A stretch of DNA of 64,000 bases from NCBI RefSeq assembly GCF_024699275.1, contig NZ_JAILPX010000155.1, forward strand, positions 1 to 64,000, written 5' to 3'. This stretch comes from Selenomonas sp. (GTDB lineage: Bacteria > Bacillota_C > Negativicutes > Selenomonadales > Selenomonadaceae). Below the pieces are notes generated by a model. That model saw nothing but the letters and a program-made list of their open reading frames with translations. It searched no databases and was not told the origin of the DNA. Of this stretch, positions 5,175 through 50,534 are shown piece after piece (within the stretch, counting starts at the first letter, position 1; each line of letters starts with the position of its first letter). Made by a program: the position numbers and the translations under genes.

Positions 5175-5211
5175 AAAAACACCTCATTCATAATTTCTTT
5201 CGTTCATCAAT

Positions 5212-5263
5212 TATAACGCCGTTGTGCCAGTTTTGCCATAGGTAAAACTGGCACAACGGCGTT
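5212..5263 (-). promoter_or_regulatory. Promoter-bearing long palindrome upstream of the thioesterase gene
   Basis: Two 23-base arms starting AACGCCGTTGTGCCAGTTTT are complementary at 22 positions around a 3-base centre (5215-5263). On the minus strand, TATAAT adjoins the arm nearest the gene, about 40 bases before the ATG at 5174. The inner part recurs at about 22990-23022 ahead of the histidine kinase gene, again ending in TATAAT. A regulator operator over a promoter or a mobile palindromic repeat are both possible. Confidence 0.6.
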
Positions 5264-13823: not shown

Positions 13824-15101
13824 ATGGCCAAACAAACAATGCAACATCAATGCAGCTTCTGCAAGCGAATCATCAATGTTCGGGACCAATACGACCTGCC
13901 CATTTATGATCCCAACACCGGTTTCGCCATTTGCCGTAACTGCATCAAAGAAGTCAACCACTTCCTGGAAGAACACGATGCTGCCCAAGTCCAGGACGAA
14001 AAGCAGGTATTTGCCGGCGAGCTGGACGATATCCTCACCAAGAACAAACCCCATATCATCAAAAAATATCTGGATGAATACATCATCAACCAGGACCGGG
14101 CCAAAAAAATTCTCTCTGTAGCCGTCTACAACCATTACAAACGCATGAAATACGGCTATCAGCAAAGCGATGGCACAGAAATCGAAAAATCCAACGTCAT
14201 CATGCTGGGACCATCCGGCTGCGGCAAGACAGCCCTGCTGTCCCACCTGTCCAAGCTGCTGGATATCCCCTTTGCCGTCACCGATGCCTCCAGCCTCACT
14301 GAAGCAGGTTTTGTCGGTGCCGATGTGGAAGTAGCCGTCCGCAACCTCTATTACGCTGCGGATAAGGACGTGGAAAAAGCCGAGCACGGCATTATCTATC
14401 TGGATGAATTTGACAAGATTGCCCGCAAATCCGGTGCCAACAACTCCATCACCGCAGACCCTGGTCACGAAGGTGTCCAGCAGGCGCTCCTCAAAATGTT
14501 GGAGGGCAGCGTGGTGGAATTCACGTCCCGGGGACAGCGCAAACACCCGGAAGCCCCCACCATCAAAGTGGATACGAAGAACATCCTCTTCATCGTCGGC
14601 GGTGCCTTTGTGGGAATTGACGAAGTGATTGCCAAACGCTTGAATAAAACCAGCTCCATCGGTTTCGGTGCCGAAGTTCAGGGCAAGGAGGACAAGCCCA
14701 AATTCGATGAACTCATCCACAAAGTGCGGCCCGAAGACCTCATGCAGTACGGTATCATCCCCGAAATCATTGGCCGCCTGCCCGTAATCTGCACCTTGGA
14801 AACTCTGGATGAAGATGCTCTGCTGCGTATCCTCACAGAACCCAAAAATGCACCAGTAAAACAGTACGAAAAGCTGCTGGCCATGGATAACGTCGAACTG
14901 GTTTTTGAAGAAGATGCTCTGCGCGCCGTAGCCCGCAAGGCCATCGAGCGCAAAACCGGCGCCCGCTCCCTCAAGGGCATTATCGAAGACACCATGTTGG
15001 ATGTCATGTTCGACATTCCCAAATCCAATGAACCACGTAAAGTCACCATCACTAAAGCCTGCATCGAAGAAGGCGCTGCGCCAGAAGTCGTGAAAAAATA
15101 A
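13824..15101 (+). CDS. clpX: ClpX-family AAA+ unfoldase, divergent paralogue
   Basis: A 425-residue AAA+ unfoldase of the ClpX type, expected to unfold proteins, possibly for ClpP. It has an N-terminal C4 zinc domain (C10, C13, C37, C40), Walker A GPSGCGKT (129-136), Walker B YLDEFDK, pore-1 loop GFVG (162-165), an RKH loop (239-241) and the ClpP-docking IGF (279-281). Unusually, the RDVSGEG segment of canonical ClpX is ADPGHEG here (211-217). It stands alone, without tig, clpP or lon. Since ClpX is normally encoded beside clpP, this may be a second copy; only the rest of the genome can settle that. Confidence 0.85.
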   Translation: MAKQTMQHQCSFCKRIINVRDQYDLPIYDPNTGFAICRNCIKEVNHFLEEHDAAQVQDEKQVFAGELDDILTKNKPHIIKKYLDEYIINQDRAKKILSVAVYNHYKRMKYGYQQSDGTEIEKSNVIMLGPSGCGKTALLSHLSKLLDIPFAVTDASSLTEAGFVGADVEVAVRNLYYAADKDVEKAEHGIIYLDEFDKIARKSGANNSITADPGHEGVQQALLKMLEGSVVEFTSRGQRKHPEAPTIKVDTKNILFIVGGAFVGIDEVIAKRLNKTSSIGFGAEVQGKEDKPKFDELIHKVRPEDLMQYGIIPEIIGRLPVICTLETLDEDALLRILTEPKNAPVKQYEKLLAMDNVELVFEEDALRAVARKAIERKTGARSLKGIIEDTMLDVMFDIPKSNEPRKVTITKACIEEGAAPEVVKK

Positions 15102-15160: not shown

Positions 15161-15208
15161 AGAGGCCCTCATCAGTTAGATTGACTGGTCTAACTGATGA
15201 GGGTCTCT
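15161..15208 (+). terminator. Hairpin after the clpX paralogue, shared with the hairpin at 40303
   Basis: A stem of about 20 bp (AGAGGCCCTCATCAGTTAGA with near-perfect complement) and an 8-base loop lies 60 bases after the clpX-like stop. No strong T-run follows. The core AGTTAGA/TCTAACT is identical to the hairpin beside topB while the flanking pairs differ in both strands, that is, they covary. Confidence 0.6.
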
Positions 15209-15224
15209 GTAAAATTATCAACAC

Positions 15225-15841
15225 ACTTTTGGCAAATTGCAGTTTGTCGAGGAGTCCAGGTCAATGTTATTCTGTTCATACGTGGTCAGGGGCAAGCGGG
15301 GGAGTAATTTTCTGTTTCCCGCTAAAACGGCCCCTTCGTAAAATAGAGCTGTCCTGTTACCTGCGCCGGGCAGGCCAACGGCGCGTCTTTCACCGCACTG
15401 ACCTAGTATCTTCCTGCCGGGACCGGCCTTCACTACGTTCAGGCAGACGCTTCGGACAGAAAATCACTCCCCCGCTCACCCCAAAGCTACGACCTATATG
15501 ATTGCCACGAACACGTTGCTCCCGTAACAAGAACATCGATGTACTTGCTGCTTATCACTGCAAAAAATACAAGGTAGGCAAAGTTAACTTAGAGCGGAGG
15601 TGGTGATACTTTTCGCCAGGGAACGATTGTCCGAACGCAGTGAGGACTGGTCCACAAAAGGCATAAACTGGATACTGAGCTGAACATACGCGCCGTCGGC
15701 CTGCCCGGCGCAGATGGCTAAAAAGCTAAAACACATCTTGTGGGCCATTTAGTGGAACGGCGAAAAGTATTACCACCTCCGCGCCAACTGAGCTGTAGCA
15801 AAAAACAGAAAGCGCGCAATAACAGCGATAAGCTGCAATAT
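15225..15841 (+). repeat. Foldback intergenic element, copy A (long form)
   Basis: About 620 noncoding bases fill most of the 15102-15864 gap. The left 60 bases and right 205 bases recur at 39990-40277 in the same order. Three long inverted repeats lie inside: 15296-15315 with 15456-15475, 15361-15385 with 15689-15713 (24 of 25 pairs), and 15594-15617 with 15759-15782. The ends share an imperfect inverted repeat around ATTGCAGTTTGTCG. There is no convincing reading frame. A MITE-like or foldback mobile element, or a structured RNA, would fit. Confidence 0.8.
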
Positions 15842-15864: not shown

Positions 15865-16896
15865 TCAAATATCCATAGATGTAATCTTCTCCGCTTTCAT
15901 GAAGGCGGAGATTTTTTGTATCCCGCGCATGACTTCCGCATAGTTTTCGGGAGTCAGAGACTGCGGCCCATCGGATAGCGCCTTAGCCGGATTGGGATGA
16001 ACCTCCATCATCAGGCCATCAGCACCTGCAGCAATAGCCGCAAAGGCCATGGGCTTTACCATTCTCCATTTCCCTGTGCCATGGCTGGGATCAACGATAA
16101 TCGGCAAATGAGACAGATGCTTTACCGCCGCCACCGCACTTAAATCCAAAGTATTACGGGTATAGGTTTCATAGGTACGGATACCACGTTCACAAAGCAC
16201 CACATTGGGATTGCCCGCATTCATGATATACTCCGCCGCATTGAGCCATTCATCAATAGTAGCGGCCAGGCCACGTTTCAAGAGCACCGGCTTCCCACAT
16301 TTACCGACTTCTTTCAAAAGCCCAAAGTTCTGCATATTCCGGGCACCAATCTGAAGCATATCCGCATACTCCGTCACCCCGGCAATGGCTTCCACCGTCG
16401 TAACCTCCGTCACCACCCGCAAGCCCGTGCGTTCTCTGGCTTCTGCCAAATACTTCAGCCCTTTCACTTCCAATCCTTGGAATGCGTAGGGAGATGTCCG
16501 CGGCTTATAGGCACCGCCGCGCAGGAATTGGGCACCAGCCTTCTTCACGATATCGGCTGCTTCAAAGAGTTGCTCTTTGGATTCCACGGCACAGGGACCA
16601 GCCATGACTACTGGCGTGCCATCGCCGATCTTTACACCAGCCACATCAATAACACTATTCTGGGGATGGAATTCCCGGCTGGCCAGCTTGTAGCTCTTGG
16701 AAATCTCTACGCTCTTTTCTACCCCATCCATAGCATCAATGGGTACAGAAGCCAGCCGTGTCTTATCGCCAATAACGCCCACAATCTTCTGGTGTGTCCC
16801 CTCCATTACCTTAGCCACCAGTCCGGCCTTTTCAATAACCGCAATGATACTTTGAATATCTTCCGCTGTAGCATCTACATTCATGATAATAACCAT
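15865..16896 (-). CDS. aroF: 3-Deoxy-7-phosphoheptulonate (DAHP) synthase
   Basis: The first enzyme of the shikimate pathway, condensing phosphoenolpyruvate with erythrose 4-phosphate. The 343-residue product has an N-terminal ferredoxin-like regulatory domain (residues 1-70, beginning [14 protein letters not shown]) followed by the type I-beta catalytic barrel: [47 protein letters not shown] and IVDPSHGTG. The N-terminal domain is typical of feedback-regulated forms. pheA lies immediately upstream on the same strand, so aromatic synthesis and the phenylalanine branch may be co-expressed. A plus-strand terminator is embedded in its last codons. Confidence 0.95.
15888..15917 (+). terminator. 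Plus-strand terminator embedded in the 3' end of aroF
   Basis: TCTCCGC and GCGGAGA arms are followed on the plus strand by TTTTTT. It would stop transcripts coming through element A, while the same bases encode the aroF C-terminus (FMKAEKI) on the other strand. Confidence 0.7.
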
Positions 16897-22952: not shown

Positions 22953-23257
22953 TTTCGGAGCCCCTTTCCATTCAGATTTCCCCTTTCATTATAACGCCGT
23001 TGTTTCAGTTTTGCCATAAGCAAAACTTTCCTGGAGATTTCGATAAGGAGACAATAGGTTCGCTGTCTGTTTTGATATATATGCTCCACCTGATGCTTCA
23101 GGGAATATTTCCTTACCCCGTTATAGCCAAAACAGCGCGAAAAGCCAACTTCATTCTCAACCGAAATCGGACTTTTCGCGCCATTCAAGGAGCATACCTT
23201 ATTGTCTGTAACAGGCAAGGCGAACCCTTTATCCGCCTCCCACCTCAAGCTTCAGCC
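22953..23257. other. Structured 305-base gap between the ABC operon and the kinase gene
   Basis: No gene is seen. At 22990-23022 the promoter-palindrome sequence of 5215-5263 recurs (ATAACGCCGTTGT, then AGTTTTGC/GCAAAACT), with TATAAT facing the kinase gene on the minus strand. A perfect 10-bp stem (GCGCGAAAAG with complement) lies at 23135-23144 and 23172-23181. Around it, 23057-23071 pairs imperfectly with 23210-23226 (GGTTCGC). It could be a terminator for the lipoprotein gene plus a promoter for the kinase. Confidence 0.5.
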
Positions 23258-39988: not shown

Positions 39989-40302
39989 TTGTGAACTTGC
40001 AGTTTGTGGTGGAGTTCCTGCCAATGGTATTCCGTTCATGCGTGGTCAGGGGAAGCCTATGCAAATGCCACGAACGCGGTGAGGACTGGCCCACAAAAGG
40101 CATAAACTGGATACTGAGATGAACATACGCGCCGCCGGCCTGCCCGGCACGGGTGGCTAAAAAGCTTAAACGCGTTCTTGTGGATCATTTAGTGGAACGG
40201 CGAAAAGTATTACCACCTCCGCTCCAACTGCGCTGTAACAAAAAAGAAAGCGCGCAGTAACAGCGACAAATTGCAATTTGCCAAAAGTGCATTGATAATA
40301 TT
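39989..40302 (+). repeat. Foldback intergenic element, copy B (short form)
   Basis: About 315 noncoding bases. The left part (39995-40057) corresponds to 15233-15295 of copy A and the right part (40070-40277) to 15631-15836, in the same orientation. The 330 bases between these arms in copy A are missing here, so two of A's inner inverted repeats lack their partner. The right edge (ATTGCAATTTGCCAAAAG) is the reverse complement of A's left edge. Confidence 0.85.
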
Positions 40303-40353
40303 GCAGAGCCCCCCATAAGTTAGACAATCAATCTAACTTATGGGGGGCTCTGC
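40303..40353 (-). terminator. Strong hairpin after topB, sister of the hairpin at 15161
   Basis: A perfect 22-bp stem (GCAGAGCCCCCCATAAGTTA plus GA, with complement) and 7-base loop lies 13 bases after the topB stop. The core AGTTAGA/TCTAACT equals that at 15161 while outer pairs differ compensatorily. No T-run follows, so termination efficiency is uncertain. Confidence 0.7.
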
Positions 40354-45390: not shown

Positions 45391-47073
45391 TTATTCGCCC
45401 ACCACTACACAGTTCCGTCCGTTATTCTTAGCTCGATATAAGGCATCATCCACCCGCTTGAACAACGCCGCAGTAGTATCTTTTTCCATTCTCCACAAGG
45501 CAATACCAATACTGCAGGTTATTTTCTGTCCCGCCAATGGTATGCTGGCTATGTGCTGACGAATCTCCTCAGCCAGTTCCTTAACCTCCTCCAGATTATC
45601 ACCAGCTGTCAGGATGAGAAATTCCTCACCGCCCCAACGGATACAAGGATTATTCCTGCCAGCCCGATAGCGTACTGCCGTAGCAAAGGCCCGTAATACC
45701 GCATCTCCCATATCGTGCCCATAGTTATCATTGATTCTCTTGAAATAATCAATATCCAACATGAGCAAAGCAAATGTCTGCCCCGCTCCACCAGCATTGG
45801 CAATAGCCTTGGCCAGCAACTTCCTCAATTTGTTACGATTCCAACAGCCAGTAAGAGCATCCGTTTCCGCTTTTCGCAGCAGGGCCGCCACTTCCTTCTC
45901 CAATCCTGCCGTCTGCTCTAAAAGCGAATCCTCATAGCGCACCTCTTCTCGCAGGATACAAATGACAAAATACAAAAATGCATAAATACCGAAAGGTGTC
46001 ACATACATATGCCAGGGCAGCAAATGATAATGACCTGCTATTCCATCAACGATTCCCAACAAGGTAAAGGTCAACGTGGGAAGCAATACCGCCCGACACA
46101 GAGCATCGCCTTCCCTCGCCGCCAATATGCACCAATAAATAGCAGCCCCCTCCCCCAAGGGCAGCAAGAGATAAAACCAGGACATCAGGCCATTCATCGT
46201 ATGCCAGCCCAGTCCTTCGCCAATCATTGCTGCACCAAAAAGAAAAACATAGGCCCCTAATACATATTCCATATGGGCATATTGCTTTCCCTTCAAAAGT
46301 TCCGCCAGTACAAGATTGGACGTAATCGGTAACAGATAGGCCAGGATACTTAGGCTATACCACCAGAATACTGGACAATCAAAAAAAAGACTTTTCACAC
46401 TGGCCGCACTGATAATCCAGAGTAGAAATACCACCATAAAGAGACCAATATAACTATACAGCCTCCGCCAGCCTTCCGCATTGAAAAAATAATACAGGCC
46501 CATGATAAAGAGTATGGCAATCCCCACAGGAATGGCCAGAATCAGTGGAATATCGGAAAAAAACAACCGACCCAACTGGACCTGTTCTGTGTCCACCGAA
46601 AACATACTGAACCAGCCTAAATCCTGCGGAGCATGCGCATAAAGTTCCACCACCAATAGCCGCTGACCGGAAAAATCCGGTAACGACAGCATATAGGGTT
46701 GAGAACCTTCATCGAATCGCTGTGGTAAAAAACTTCCTGCGGAAAAGAAGAACTCATCTCCCAGCCACATCCGCACAGCCTGTTTGGCGGTCATAAAGAG
46801 CAGAATCTTTTTTTGTGGTTCTGCGTCATTTACCTTCACCGCCAACAGCAGACGATTAGTATCCGCTGCAAAATGCGGCCTGCTCTCCATATCGAACACA
46901 GGCCATTCCGCAATATGCTGCCGGGCAAATTCCGGTGCCTCCGGCAAGGGATCCCCACTGAATTCATAATAATGCCAGGGACCTTCCAGTTCCGCAGCCT
47001 GCGAACATCCATATCCCATAAGCCCCAAACAAATTCCCAGACAAAGCAAGATTCTGTATAAGATTTTTGCCAC
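45391..47073 (-). CDS. Membrane diguanylate cyclase 1 (7TM sensor + GGDEF)
   Basis: A 560-residue protein expected to make c-di-GMP. A signal-like N-terminal helix precedes an extracytoplasmic domain of about 145 residues, then seven or so helices (about 180-385), a short coiled coil and a GGDEF domain with the active site RWGGEEF and the metal/base motif LDIDYFKRINDNYGHDMGDAVL. The RxxD inhibitory site is missing. The start is the GTG at 47073, eight bases after AAGGAGG; the TTG upstream lies before that site. It is the third gene of the tandem. Confidence 0.92.
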   Translation of the reverse strand: MAKILYRILLCLGICLGLMGYGCSQAAELEGPWHYYEFSGDPLPEAPEFARQHIAEWPVFDMESRPHFAADTNRLLLAVKVNDAEPQKKILLFMTAKQAVRMWLGDEFFFSAGSFLPQRFDEGSQPYMLSLPDFSGQRLLVVELYAHAPQDLGWFSMFSVDTEQVQLGRLFFSDIPLILAIPVGIAILFIMGLYYFFNAEGWRRLYSYIGLFMVVFLLWIISAASVKSLFFDCPVFWWYSLSILAYLLPITSNLVLAELLKGKQYAHMEYVLGAYVFLFGAAMIGEGLGWHTMNGLMSWFYLLLPLGEGAAIYWCILAAREGDALCRAVLLPTLTFTLLGIVDGIAGHYHLLPWHMYVTPFGIYAFLYFVICILREEVRYEDSLLEQTAGLEKEVAALLRKAETDALTGCWNRNKLRKLLAKAIANAGGAGQTFALLMLDIDYFKRINDNYGHDMGDAVLRAFATAVRYRAGRNNPCIRWGGEEFLILTAGDNLEEVKELAEEIRQHIASIPLAGQKITCSIGIALWRMEKDTTAALFKRVDDALYRAKNNGRNCVVVGE

Positions 47074-47103
47074 CTGCTCCGCCTCCTTTTTCAACAGTCA
47101 GGA

Positions 47104-48729
47104 TTATTCTACCACCACCTGATTGCGGCCATTGCATTTCGCTGCATATAAGGCATCATCCATGCGGCGAAAGATCCCAATCTGACTATCCGTTCCCACA
47201 TGCCATTGTGCCACACCAGCACTGACCGTAATCTGTCGCTGCGATAAGAAAGCATAGGTTTCCACACGCCGCCGAATTTCTTCGGCTAAAGACCGTGCCC
47301 GTTCCCCATTGTACTTTGGACAATAAATAACAAACTCCTCACCGCCCCAACGGAAAAACTCCTGTTCCGTCTGCAAATCACTGCGCACTAATTCGGCGAA
47401 CTTTGCCAACACTCTATCACCAGCTTCATGCCCATAAGTATCATTAATCTCCTTAAAATGATCAATATCCAGCATAATCAGGGAAAACATCTTTTCCACT
47501 GTACTTTTCTGCTGAATAAAATCCTCAAACGCGCCGCGATTGCGGCACCCCGTAAGTTCATCCAGTTCCACCTGTTCCATGGTTGCGGTGATTTCCGCAT
47601 TAAGCACTTCAGCATGAGCCTCCAATTCCCGCTCCCGTACAATCTGCTCCCGCACCATACAGATAACAAAGGTACTGCAAGCATAAATGCCCAAAGGCAA
47701 CAGATAGATATGCCATTGCCAAAAGCGGCTGTATAACAAAATGGCATCCAACACCCCTAAACCTGCCATGGTCACCATGGGCACCAAGGTAAATCGGACA
47801 TAGATATTTCCCCGCTGACTGGACTCCCACATCCTCTGAAAAACCAGTATCTGTAATCCCAACAATGCACCATAAAGCAGTTGACGGCAGGCAAGCAAAC
47901 CATTATGCCCCGTAACCTCCAGGAATAACGCTCCACCAGCTAAAAGGGCATATCCCTGTATGATTCGCCGGATAGCTGGCCGCAAATCCTCTTCCAAGAC
48001 TTCCAGAATCAATGAATTCGCCACCACCGGCAACAGATAACATAGGAAATTTTCCAGGAAACGCCATATTACCGGGACATCCCAAAGGAACTGTCTTACA
48101 TTGGACAGGCTCACCGTCCAAAGCGCCATGATAAACGTCAACAAAATCAACTTGACGTTCAGCCAGCGATGAGCAACCCGATTGAACACGTACATCAGGG
48201 AAATCATTCCCAACAGTACAGCAACAGGCAAGGAAAGTCCATAGACTAAATCCATCGCAAAGAGACGCCTGGCCTGCCCGTTCGGGGTATCCACCACAAA
48301 ATTCTTAAACACCCCCAGCTGCCTTGGATAATCCGCATAAAAGTGAAATAACAGCATACTGGAGTGCGTCACAGCAGGGATTTCCACCATATGCCACTTG
48401 CTGCCATGCCCCATGAACCTGCTGCCGAAATCCCCATCGGCATAAATCTTACTGCCTTCCACAAAAACCTCCACCGCCTGTCCATCGGTGGAAAACAACA
48501 AGGTATTCTTCTCTGGCTCAGTCGGTAACAGAGAAACTTCCAACCAAGCCTCATGATTTTCCCCGGGTATCGGCGATTGGAAACGACCAAAATCAAAATA
48601 TTTCCATTTTCCCTTACTATCGTCCGCGAGGTATTGCCAATCCGACCCAATAGTGGCGGCCTGCCCCACCGGCAACGAAAGGGGCATAAAAAAAAGGAAC
48701 CACAAAACCAGTACGCTTATTCGCTGCAT
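47104..48729 (-). CDS. Membrane diguanylate cyclase 2 (7TM sensor + GGDEF)
   Basis: A 541-residue paralogue with the same design: signal peptide (cleaved after about 24), extracytoplasmic domain (25-155, including KGKWKYFDFGRF), seven helices to about 365 and GGDEF (RWGGEEFVIY, MLDIDHFKEINDTYGHEAGDRVL). I-site RxxD is absent. The ATG follows GGGAGG by eight bases. It begins 68 bases after the first gene and ends 30 bases before the third gene's start, so they are probably co-transcribed. Confidence 0.92.
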   Translation of the reverse strand: MQRISVLVLWFLFFMPLSLPVGQAATIGSDWQYLADDSKGKWKYFDFGRFQSPIPGENHEAWLEVSLLPTEPEKNTLLFSTDGQAVEVFVEGSKIYADGDFGSRFMGHGSKWHMVEIPAVTHSSMLLFHFYADYPRQLGVFKNFVVDTPNGQARRLFAMDLVYGLSLPVAVLLGMISLMYVFNRVAHRWLNVKLILLTFIMALWTVSLSNVRQFLWDVPVIWRFLENFLCYLLPVVANSLILEVLEEDLRPAIRRIIQGYALLAGGALFLEVTGHNGLLACRQLLYGALLGLQILVFQRMWESSQRGNIYVRFTLVPMVTMAGLGVLDAILLYSRFWQWHIYLLPLGIYACSTFVICMVREQIVRERELEAHAEVLNAEITATMEQVELDELTGCRNRGAFEDFIQQKSTVEKMFSLIMLDIDHFKEINDTYGHEAGDRVLAKFAELVRSDLQTEQEFFRWGGEEFVIYCPKYNGERARSLAEEIRRRVETYAFLSQRQITVSAGVAQWHVGTDSQIGIFRRMDDALYAAKCNGRNQVVVE

Positions 48730-48797
48730 CGTTTGTGCCTCCCCTTGTAAAAATCAGATTTCTTAACCTATACCAGTAAATATTCCCAGAAAAGCCT

Positions 48798-50534
48798 TTA
48801 TTCACTGCCCTCATCGCTATAGAGATTCTTGAACCAGTGCATATTGCTCCTAGGCTCCCGACAAACCCGATTGCGGCCAGTACGCTTAGCCATATAAAGC
48901 GCATCATCTACCCGTTTCAAAAGTTGCGTATCCGAATCCGTAGCACCATGCCAGGAAGCTACCCCTAAACTGCAGGTAATATGAATCTGCCCCGCATGCA
49001 GCGGAGTATCCACTATTTTACGGCGCAGACGTTCCCCAATCCGCATCGTCTCCTCTCCAGCGCAACGGAAGAGAATGATAAACTCCTCGCCGCCCCAACG
49101 CACGAATAAATCCTTTTTCTTGATATTCTGCCTTATGGTCTGCGCAAAACCAGCCAGCACTTCATCTCCCACTTCATGCCCGTAAGTATCATTAATCCGC
49201 TTAAAGAAATCAATATCCAGCATAAGCAGTGAGAACGGTTCCTCATCATTCCTATGCAGGAGGATTTCCCTGGCCAGGATTGTCTCCAGTTTGTTGCGAT
49301 TATAGCATTTGGTAAGCGTATCCATCGTGGCCCGTTCCATGGCCTGATTTACCTCTTGCTTCAGCCCGGCTTCCCGATTCATCAGCGTACGCTCCCGCTT
49401 AATCTGATGAAAGACGATAAAGGCCACAAATATACACAAGGATACTGTTGTATAGGGGAGGACATAGCCTTCCAACATATACTCATGACGGAAAAAGGCT
49501 ATACCATCAATCGTACCCGCTCCCCCCATAAAAATCAAAGGTACAGCCACTGCCCGGGCATACATATTCCCCTGATGAGCAGAGCGGCCAATAGCATATA
49601 ACGCGGCCAATTCCAACACGGGCAGAAGGATGTAGAACCACACCCGCCCCTGGCTCATGCCATTGAACCCCAGCAGTTCAGAGCCTACGGACGCCAGCAG
49701 AAAACCAGCATAAATCAGCACCGTCCAACGAAGCATATGCTTATACGGACGCCCCACCACTTGAAAGATTACAATATTCGCCAAAAGCGGCAGAAGGTAT
49801 TCTGCCAGCTGCATAAGGAAGCACCAAAAGAGTGGTGCATCCCAAAGATACTGTTTGGAATTGGTTGCACTAATCATCCAGACGATAAATGCCACCATAA
49901 AGGCAATAAAGGATTTATAAAGCCGTTTAGGCGCTGCAGGGCTGGTAGCATAAATCATCAACATGACTAGCATAAAGATTGCCAACGGAATATTCATCAG
50001 ATAGGGCACATCCTGACGGAATATGCGCAATACCTGATCGACCTTGCTATCCAGCCATATCTGCCCGAAATACCCTAGGCTATACGATGATGCCGAATAA
50101 GCGTGAATACGCAATTCCTGACCGCCGCTGCCATCCGGTATGCTCACAACATGCCAGCGCTGCCCATAGGACATAAACGATGGCTGCAGGTCTCCATAAT
50201 GATAAATCCGCGTATTCCCCAGCCACACCTCAAAGGACTGATCACGGGACTGCAGCAACAGGGATGCATCATGCGGTATATCCTGTGGCAATGTAGTTTT
50301 TAGCCAAACCTTATCTTCTTTGCTGTCTATTGGCGGCGTTTCTGGAAAGGAAAAGGGTTGCCACGGAGCTCCCATCGCTGCATCTTCTTCTGTCTGCCAG
50401 AACCAGGAACTATCCAGGCCTGCTGCCAATCCCCTATTGCCATAAATCAAGGATAACGATAGAAAGAACAAGAAAAGGGAGAGCATAAACGGCAAGACAA
50501 CAATTCTCCAGCCTCTAGCTGATTTTACTTGCAC
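48798..50534 (-). CDS. Membrane diguanylate cyclase 3 (7TM sensor + GGDEF)
   Basis: A 578-residue paralogue: N-terminal membrane anchor, extracytoplasmic domain of about 150 residues, seven helices, coiled coil and GGDEF domain (RWGGEEFIILF, MLDIDFFKRINDTYGHEVGDEVL). The residues at the I-site read KKKD rather than RxxD. Start is a GTG preceded by GGGAGGG. It is the first of the tandem and lies 34 bases after pfkA without an intervening terminator, so read-through from pfkA is likely. Confidence 0.92.
   Translation of the reverse strand: MQVKSARGWRIVVLPFMLSLFLFFLSLSLIYGNRGLAAGLDSSWFWQTEEDAAMGAPWQPFSFPETPPIDSKEDKVWLKTTLPQDIPHDASLLLQSRDQSFEVWLGNTRIYHYGDLQPSFMSYGQRWHVVSIPDGSGGQELRIHAYSASSYSLGYFGQIWLDSKVDQVLRIFRQDVPYLMNIPLAIFMLVMLMIYATSPAAPKRLYKSFIAFMVAFIVWMISATNSKQYLWDAPLFWCFLMQLAEYLLPLLANIVIFQVVGRPYKHMLRWTVLIYAGFLLASVGSELLGFNGMSQGRVWFYILLPVLELAALYAIGRSAHQGNMYARAVAVPLIFMGGAGTIDGIAFFRHEYMLEGYVLPYTTVSLCIFVAFIVFHQIKRERTLMNREAGLKQEVNQAMERATMDTLTKCYNRNKLETILAREILLHRNDEEPFSLLMLDIDFFKRINDTYGHEVGDEVLAGFAQTIRQNIKKKDLFVRWGGEEFIILFRCAGEETMRIGERLRRKIVDTPLHAGQIHITCSLGVASWHGATDSDTQLLKRVDDALYMAKRTGRNRVCREPRSNMHWFKNLYSDEGSE

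What the first reader, a model, noticed from the sequence alone, without database searches (positions are those of the whole stretch)
15225..15841. Foldback intergenic element with three nested inverted repeats (copy A)
About 620 bases contain no gene but three long inverted repeats (20, 25 and 24 bp). The largest pairs 24 of 25 bases over a span of 350. The left and right parts recur at 40 kb. The folding potential and intergenic position suggest a MITE-like or structured mobile element. No known family was recognised.
Basis: seen in the sequence. Interest (0 to 1): 0.75.

Follow-up and report, generated by a model that had tools for sequence, protein, structure and literature searches.

The report
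Swapping palindromic DNA cassettes in Selenomonas
A gene-free, roughly 605-letter DNA palindrome is scattered between genes in Selenomonas bacteria, and between strains the spots often stay the same while the copy sitting there, and the way it points, changes, which suggests a DNA-swapping process whose machinery is not yet known.

Summary
Copy A (15234-15841) is a gene-free element with long inverted repeats; copy B (39994-40279) is internally deleted. The repeats are not nested: two hairpin units lie side by side, and the third repeat crosses both because the units are inverted homologues. The family was found in 15 of 189 Selenomonadaceae genomes, plus one 77-nt match, with at least 31 near-full copies and 2 halves on one 2.83-Mb contig. 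Ends are AAATTGCAGTTTG; a terminator-like hairpin is often adjacent. Pairing is kept by compensatory changes, but sporadic G-T and A-C mismatches are about equally rare, pointing to DNA rather than RNA. Of 60 cross-genome pairs at the same site, 31 share orientation and 29 are flipped; 15 of 28 sites show both. With flanks at least 90% identical, elements have median identity 0.862 against 0.931 for adjacent flanks, orientation 13:13. Occupants seem to be exchanged at fixed sites in random orientation. The machinery is unknown; Y1/RAYT genes are undetected in 6 of 15 carriers. Best reading: a non-autonomous foldback (MITE/BIME-like) cassette with exchange behaviour that I did not find described.

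The parts
15161..15208 (.). Hairpin (terminator-like) 25 bp outside the left terminal repeat of copy A
   Evidence: Inverted repeat 20 nt, 95%. Its core TCTAACTKATGRGGG, with up to 2 mismatches, occurs in the window only here and beside copy B.
15234..15841 (+). Copy A, complete element, 608 bp
   Evidence: Match to positions 2-605 of a 606-position profile of the family, 559.5 bits (copy A is itself in the profile); boundaries from the 69-copy alignment.
15234..15246 (+). Left terminal inverted repeat AAATTGCAGTTTG
   Evidence: Conserved start of the copies; read.
15828..15841 (-). Right terminal inverted repeat, degenerate in copy A (ATATTGCAGCTTAT on the minus strand)
   Evidence: Position by alignment.
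15289..15482 (-). Left hairpin unit; outer stem 15289-15315/15456-15482
   Evidence: compensatory changes in the stem; minus strand folds at z -5.8 (15285-15486).
15582..15794 (+). Right hairpin unit; outer stem 15582-15617/15759-15794; inverted homologue of the left unit
   Evidence: plus strand z -6.1 (15590-15790); 11 of 40 predicted pairs with changes on both sides over 40 copies.
15361..15386 (+). GC-rich hairpin of the left unit; pairs also with 15688-15713 of the right unit
   Evidence: 96% complementary; explained by the two halves being inverted homologues.
15629..15647 (+). Mini-hairpin GTCC-GAACGCAGTGA-GGAC: tandem G-A and a GNA triloop closed by C-G
   Evidence: Exact GAACGNAGTGA (N = C, A or T) in 66 of 73 right units.
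15528..15547 (.). Central palindrome CAAGAACATCGATGTACTTG, axis of symmetry of the element
   Evidence: I6; strongly conserved.
39994..40279 (+). Copy B, internally deleted (286 bp): left end plus model positions 400-605
40303..40353 (.). Hairpin (terminator-like) beside the right end of copy B, related to that of copy A but on the other side of the element
   Evidence: Read; 62-nt inverted match to the left flank and end of copy A; motif search.

Best explanation
A family of non-autonomous, non-coding mobile DNA cassettes. Each is about 605 bp and consists of two homologous hairpin units in inverted orientation between terminal repeats AAATTGCAGTTTG. Shown here: many copies, common ends, empty sites, conservation of pairing with strand-symmetric sporadic mismatches, and differing occupants in random orientation at shared intergenic sites. 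Inferred: the element is cut out at its terminal repeats, perhaps while folded as single-stranded or cruciform DNA, and another copy is put into the same place by an enzyme or repair route acting in trans; because both ends are alike, either orientation results. The neighbouring terminator-like hairpin may shield genes and mark the site (inference).
For: Copies: the stem motif in 112 stretches of genome contigs, all 112 loci titled Selenomonas; at least 31 near-full and 2 half copies on a 2.83-Mb contig (40 of 45 candidates scored). Ends. Empty site of copy A: clpX and DAHP synthase about 50 bp apart in G105 and G003. Orientation: 31 same, 29 flipped of 60 cross-genome pairs; 15 of 28 sites with both; a flip between long-contig assemblies G105 and G132 is included (L118/L237). 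Exchange: 26 pairs with flanks at least 90% identical, element median 0.862 against 0.931 for the adjacent 60-nt flanks; a G132 copy is 0.965 like 9 copies of its own genome but 0.713 like the element at the same site in G105. Boundaries in the terminal repeats on both sides in L022/L114, L025/L130, L039/L092, L044/L123 and L055/L132. No partial inversion inside: unit and centre orientation kept in 73 of 73 copies. DNA level: pairs predicted on both strands, right unit WC 3363, GT 31, AC 57; left unit WC 2779, GT 26, AC 25. Hairpin next to the element: 9 of 13 strict AGTCCGCTGAC hairpins in 2.0 Mb of G105 lie 1-12 bp from a full copy, and one of the other four is at a site that holds an element in G003.
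Against: No mobilising gene found. No clear target duplication, though flank letters match more often than shuffled at length 6 (133 against 92.7, sd 8.5) with one exact 6-bp case of 56. Empty sites differ in more than the element, so no clean footprint was read. The element was less similar than both adjacent flanks in only 13 of 26 pairs. Flip and replacement are not statistically linked (Fisher p 0.32). The same-site copy is the closest copy at 7 of 17 G105/G003 sites, so part of the family is stably inherited. Four positions carry a fixed G-T pair in the unit sense against one half-fixed A-C, which leaves room for an RNA or one-strand role. A looser hairpin pattern gives only 8 of 20 near full elements. 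Several genomes are metagenome assemblies.
Confidence: 0.58

Rival explanations
1. Host-driven break and repair: the palindrome is cut or stalls replication, and the gap is repaired from any other copy by short homology in the terminal repeats. The element is a passive repeat kept alike by ectopic gene conversion; no dedicated enzyme is needed.
For: Patchy similarity along elements at shared sites; copies are alike within a genome (mean 0.862-0.877) and less so between G001 and G105 (0.782); polymerase template switching at inverted repeats is reported to homogenise arms and invert spacers (PMC8604942, start of abstract in the listing only).
Against: The unit stems are longer and closer together than the terminal repeats, yet no unit interior is inverted in 73 of 73 copies (copies chosen for full-length matches). 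Partial removal should favour the original orientation (inference), but it is 13:13.
Confidence: 0.22
2. A large structured non-coding RNA present in many copies.
For: Very stable folds, changes on both sides in 11 of 40 pairs, conserved loops, four fixed G-T pairs in one sense.
Against: Sporadic G-T is no commoner than A-C, whereas RNA helices tolerate G-U. The two units point opposite ways. Half of the full G105 copies sit next to a terminator-like hairpin, and orientation is random. No Rfam match at the curated thresholds.
Confidence: 0.1
3. Simple in-place inversion by a site-specific recombinase (an inverton), without exchange of occupants.
For: About half of shared-site pairs are flipped, with boundaries in the terminal repeats in the clearest cases.
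Against: At flank identity of 90% or more, 12 of 13 flipped pairs have element identity below 0.90; a bare flip would keep it near flank level. Only L022/L114 (0.920) looks like a bare flip.
Confidence: 0.05
4. Independent insertion of copies into the same preferred site in each lineage, next to the terminator-like hairpin.
For: Tight spacing to hairpins; empty sites exist.
Against: Junctions agree on both sides in five of the nine flipped pairs shown, and 17 sites are shared by G105 and G003, 11 same and 6 flipped. Would need near-obligatory target choice.
Confidence: 0.05

Closest known systems
[quoted passage not shown]
   Same: Non-coding, terminal inverted repeats, dozens of intergenic copies, empty sites.
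   Different: Near-constant length (592-618 in 69 copies chosen for covering most of the query) compared with 50-500 bp given for MITEs in PMC10969869 (passages); no clear target duplication; no gene-bearing element with these ends recognised in G105 and G132; occupants differ at fixed sites.
BIMEs / REP elements with RAYT transposases
   Same: Paired hairpins in inverted orientation between genes; used as landing sites by insertion sequences (for REPs: PMC1525189, outline and abstract).
   Different: Units of about 200 nt rather than the 20-40 nt I recall for REPs; Y1_Tnp not detected in 6 of 15 carrier genomes.
Invertons (recombinase-flipped promoters and similar; recalled, and listings)
   Same: Both orientations at one site, short inverted repeats at the boundary.
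   Different: About 30 dispersed homologous copies per genome, occupants differ between strains.
Integron attC sites and gene cassettes (recalled)
   Same: Imperfect palindromes thought to act as folded single strands.
   Different: No gene in the element; both ends alike; dispersed single sites. No integron integrase was looked for.
Large ornate RNAs (ROOL, GOLLD, OLE; recalled)
   Same: Similar size and strong folding.
   Different: No Rfam match at the curated thresholds; mismatch symmetry speaks for DNA.

Membership tests
MITE | Terminal inverted repeats | tested here: met
   56 copies with clean repeats at both ends.
MITE | No coding capacity | tested here: met
   Only mechanical ORFs up to 119 aa overlap copy A apart from a 479-aa ORF antisense to clpX that ends before it; the larger inserts examined in other copies are insertion sequences of known families, one with cargo.
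MITE | Target-site duplication | tested here: not met
   Of 56 copies, exact duplications outside the repeats: 8 at 2 bp, 1 at 6 bp, 0 at 3-5 and 7-12 bp. A palindromic AATT duplication inside the repeat cannot be excluded.
MITE | Autonomous parent element with the same ends | tested here: inconclusive
   By eye, all 23 exact AAATTGCAGTTTR matches in G105 and all 34 in G132 fall at full or partial copies; G003 has 35, a few of which I did not assign. Other genomes not examined.
REP/BIME with RAYT | Y1 (HUH) transposase in the genome | tested here: not met
   PF01797: 9 of 15 carriers have a match, 6 have none; incomplete assemblies could hide one.
REP/BIME with RAYT | Paired inverted hairpins, intergenic | tested here: met
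Structured RNA | Strand-specific tolerance of G-U pairs | tested here: inconclusive
   Sporadic changes symmetric; four fixed G-T positions.
Structured RNA | Transcript | not testable with these tools
   No expression data.
Inverton | Both orientations within one clone | not testable with these tools
   Only assemblies of different strains were compared.
Inverton | Flanking inverted repeats at the flip boundary | tested here: met
   five of nine flipped pairs shown are clear on both sides.
Integron cassette | attI, integrase gene and cassette array | not tested
   No search for an integron integrase was made.

The most novel reading that the evidence does not exclude
A genome-wide cassette-exchange system: about 30 fixed intergenic docking sites per genome, many marked by a terminator-like hairpin, whose foldback DNA occupants are swapped among sites in random orientation by an unidentified recombinase that reads the folded DNA ends. 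This would be a mode of DNA turnover distinct from transposition into new sites and from simple inversion.
Probability: 0.28. Interest if true: 0.85.

Novelty: new variant of a known kind. Interest (0 to 1): 0.68.

Why it matters
Dispersed palindromes are common in bacteria, but how they persist and stay alike is a long-standing question. Here site, occupant and orientation can be told apart in assembled genomes, so turnover can be measured: sites are shared by different Selenomonas genomes while occupants resemble the other copies of the genome they live in. If an enzyme does this, it would be a gene-free cassette exchanger with short, nearly palindromic ends. If repair does it, the family is a natural recorder of palindrome breakage and ectopic conversion. 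Either way, the orientation of such a repeat at a locus is no guide to strain relationship in this group.

Tried and rejected
RNA reading: put second after the mismatch symmetry test. Autonomous element with a gene inside: the inserts of about 1.8 kb in five fetched G132 copies are an IS1182-family element with 9-bp duplications (the family search was run on one of the five proteins), and inserts in L075 and L021 carry IS4-family (with cargo) and IS110-family transposases. RAYT/IS200 partner: rejected as a general partner. Target duplication: not clear; I ascribe the excess of matches at lengths 4, 6, 8 and 10 to A/T-rich, inverted-symmetric flanks, which is not proved. Solo terminal-repeat sites as excision scars: one AAAYTGCARTTT outside elements in 2.0 Mb. 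Origin-centred distribution: copies crowd one part of the G105 contig, but the GC-skew switch lies elsewhere, so dropped. Phages: none; IMG/VR: none with the exact motif. Plasmids: one truncated copy, on pSR1. Literature: six text searches aimed at such an element and two on mechanism; nothing in the rows listed describes this family, but not every hit was listed. Papers were seen as listings only, except PMC10969869 (passages) and PMC1525189 (outline and abstract).

One search keeps 26 of 60 pairs (flank mean at least 90%). One search counts include four re-fetched G003 loci that repeat others (all filled). One search keeps 73 of 140 full copies after removing near-duplicates. One search uses 40 of those 73. 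One search was a script that stopped on an error and was redone.

Full report
WHAT IS THERE. Between clpX (13824-15101, plus strand) and a DAHP synthase gene (15865-16896, minus strand; names) lies a stretch without a recognisable gene but with three long inverted repeats. They are far beyond chance (fold z -7.0 and -5.3 on the two strands, 20 shuffles each). They are not nested: 15289-15315/15456-15482 and 15582-15617/15759-15794 are two neighbouring hairpins, and 15361-15386/15688-15713 has one arm in the loop of each. A second, internally deleted copy is at 39994-40279, between a DUF4127 protein gene and a topoisomerase III gene. No Rfam family reaches its curated score and no tRNA is found in the window.

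A FAMILY OF NEAR-CONSTANT LENGTH. The stem motif was found in 112 stretches of genome contigs; all 112 loci carry Selenomonas titles (S. ruminantium, or Selenomonas sp. AE3005). The exact motif is absent from IMG/VR, no phage record matches and one plasmid record has a truncated copy. Sixty-nine copies chosen for covering most of the query align with lengths of 592-618. Choosing by motif inflates conservation of that motif, but copies taken by similarity from G105 have the same plan: at least 31 near-full and 2 half copies on its 2.83-Mb contig (40 of 45 candidates scored). Eight genomes reached through the motif show 26-65 match rows each, pieces counted (these genomes were chosen for having it). 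In family-wide searches 15 of 151 genomes match and, with a divergent copy as query, 16 of 189, one of them (G110) by only 77 nt; at most three candidates per genome were scored, so faint relatives may be missed. The window's own genome is not held; it is assigned to Selenomonas by similarity only.

ANATOMY. Ends are AAATTGCAGTTTG and its inverse. A profile of the element matches its own reverse complement from end to end (for example L200: 249.7 bits forward, 153.5 reverse), so the element is an inverted duplication of a half of about 303 nt with the axis at ATCGAT (15537). Each half holds one hairpin unit of about 200 nt with a long stem, a mini-hairpin (GAACGNAGTGA, a GNA triloop with tandem G-A, in 66 of 73 right units) and a GC-rich hairpin. 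GNA triloops are, from memory, unusually stable in single-stranded DNA.

PAIRING IS KEPT, APPARENTLY AT THE DNA LEVEL. Over 40 copies of the right unit, 11 of 40 predicted pairs show changes on both sides that keep the pair. In the set of 73, pairs predicted on both strands and with a Watson-Crick consensus show WC 3363, G-T 31, A-C 57 (right unit) and WC 2779, G-T 26, A-C 25 (left unit, in its own sense). Over the whole element, pairs predicted on one strand only lean to G-T on that strand, as the choice of pairs would make them. An RNA helix should tolerate G-U more than A-C. Against this, four positions have a fixed G-T in the unit sense and one a half-fixed A-C. My reading is selection or templated repair on folded DNA, perhaps with one preferred strand.

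SURROUNDINGS. In 2.0 Mb of G105, 26 full copies lie between ORFs of at least 100 aa: 15 tandem, 8 convergent, 3 divergent (simple ORF picking that set aside ORFs overlapping the element). A terminator-like hairpin lies within 60 bp in 13 of 26 (14 distances, 2-15 bp), against 2.6% of random genome positions; no intergenic-only control was run. Nine of 13 strict hairpins of the AGTCCGCTGAC family in these 2.0 Mb lie 1-12 bp from a full copy, and one of the other four is at 56.87 kb, where G003 has an element and G105 does not; a looser pattern gave 8 of 20 near full copies. In the window a different hairpin (TCTAACTKATGRGGG) occurs only beside copies A and B, on opposite sides relative to the element.

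EMPTY SITES. The site of copy A is empty in G105 and G003, where clpX and DAHP synthase are about 50 bp apart, and in G050, G120 and G124, where they are also close. G132 and G128 hold an element beside DAHP synthase, next to the same hairpin and in opposite orientation, the G128 copy being cut by a contig end. In the other genomes of that search the two genes are 1.6 kb or more apart, or on different contigs, and were not interpreted. Of 110 elements tested by their flanks against 2.0 Mb of G105, 51 placed: 33 filled (four of these repeats of others), 17 empty, 1 other. Empty and filled sites also differ around the element, so no footprint was read. No clear target duplication was found; letters beside the two ends do match more than shuffled at length 6 (133 against 92.7, sd 8.5), with one exact 6-bp case of 56.

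SITES STAY, OCCUPANTS CHANGE. Flanks on both sides identify the same site in different genomes. Of 60 cross-genome pairs, 31 have the element in the same and 29 in the opposite orientation; 15 of 28 sites show both (the raw count with repeats was 49 and 43). In five of the nine flipped pairs shown the flanks match on both sides up to or into the terminal repeat; the other four are less clear on at least one side. For flank identity of 90% or more the count is 13 and 13, and element identity is 0.79-0.97, median 0.862, while the 60 nt next to the element, which I did not check for coding one by one, have median 0.931; the element is less similar than both adjacent flanks in 13 of 26 pairs and than the better one in 22. 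Examples: L020/L120, flanks 1.0 and 1.0, element 0.870, flipped; L025/L130, 0.98 and 0.98, element 0.855, flipped. Flip and low identity are not significantly linked (Fisher p 0.32). Between G105 and G003 (17 sites, 11 same and 6 flipped) the copy at the same site is the closest copy in 7; at the other 10 some copy elsewhere is closer, and similarity is patchy along the element. Between species the effect is plainer: L237 of G132 is 0.965 like 9 copies of its own genome, but 0.713 and 0.718 like the elements at the same site in G105 and AE3005. Faster divergence of noncoding DNA is a fair objection to the close pairs; the adjacent-flank control and the between-species case answer it in part. 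Metagenome assemblies could mis-join repeats, but flips are also seen between the long-contig assemblies G105 and G132 (L118/L237) and between G105 and ATCC 12561 (L130/L017) or AE3005 (L118/L102).

NOT ORDINARY SLIPPAGE. If any inverted repeat could invert its spacer, the long, close unit stems should do so most. In 73 of 73 full copies both unit interiors and the centre keep their orientation, and the outer parts in 72 of 73. The set was selected for full-length matches, so scrambled copies could have been missed; of 32 profile hits in 2.0 Mb of G105, 26 are full and 6 partial or faint.

WHO MOVES IT. Unknown. The larger inserts that I examined inside copies are other insertion sequences that use the units as targets: an IS1182-family element in 5 of 5 fetched G132 copies with 9-bp duplications at the stem base (read; family), and IS110-family and IS4-family insertions in L021 and L075. 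Y1 transposases are not detected in 6 of 15 carriers. By eye, all 23 exact terminal-repeat matches in G105 and all 34 in G132 fall at full or partial copies, and no gene-bearing element with these ends was recognised other than the IS1182-interrupted copies; G003 has 35 matches, a few not assigned.

VERDICT. A real, sizeable element family, not described in the rows listed by six text searches aimed at it. The mobile-element reading holds, with an exchange behaviour that does not match a plain MITE, BIME or inverton. The mechanism is inferred, not shown.

Noticed in passing
L254-L258 (G132), L075, L021: Three insertion-sequence families have inserted into the hairpin units: IS1182 (five copies at the stem base with 9-bp duplications), IS4 (with a YadA-anchor protein gene and a CoiA_N-domain gene as cargo) and IS110.
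   Followed up: partly
L113 (NC_002139.1, plasmid pSR1), 4406-4690 and 12-154: A 4.7-kb S. ruminantium plasmid record with radical-SAM and HAMP-domain genes and no replication gene in PLSDB's (incomplete) table carries a truncated element across its start; it may be a circle cut from a chromosome.
   Followed up: no
L013, L027, L053, L090, L098: A longer sub-type of the element (703-846 bp over the matched part) in which the central region appears twice.
   Followed up: partly
G003:C17:23204-23509: Two terminal repeats facing each other only 306 bp apart, a probable half-size derivative like copy B.
   Followed up: no
window 45692-49236: Three copies of an 84-nt repeat about 1.7 kb apart (67-82% identity), perhaps related neighbouring genes.
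   Followed up: no
window 5210-5249 and 22988-23027: A 40-nt direct repeat at 90% identity, possibly another small repeat family.
   Followed up: no
L133, L134, L141 (G105): Three element copies with nearly identical flanks (98.6-100%), so a segment holding the element is repeated in this genome.
   Followed up: no
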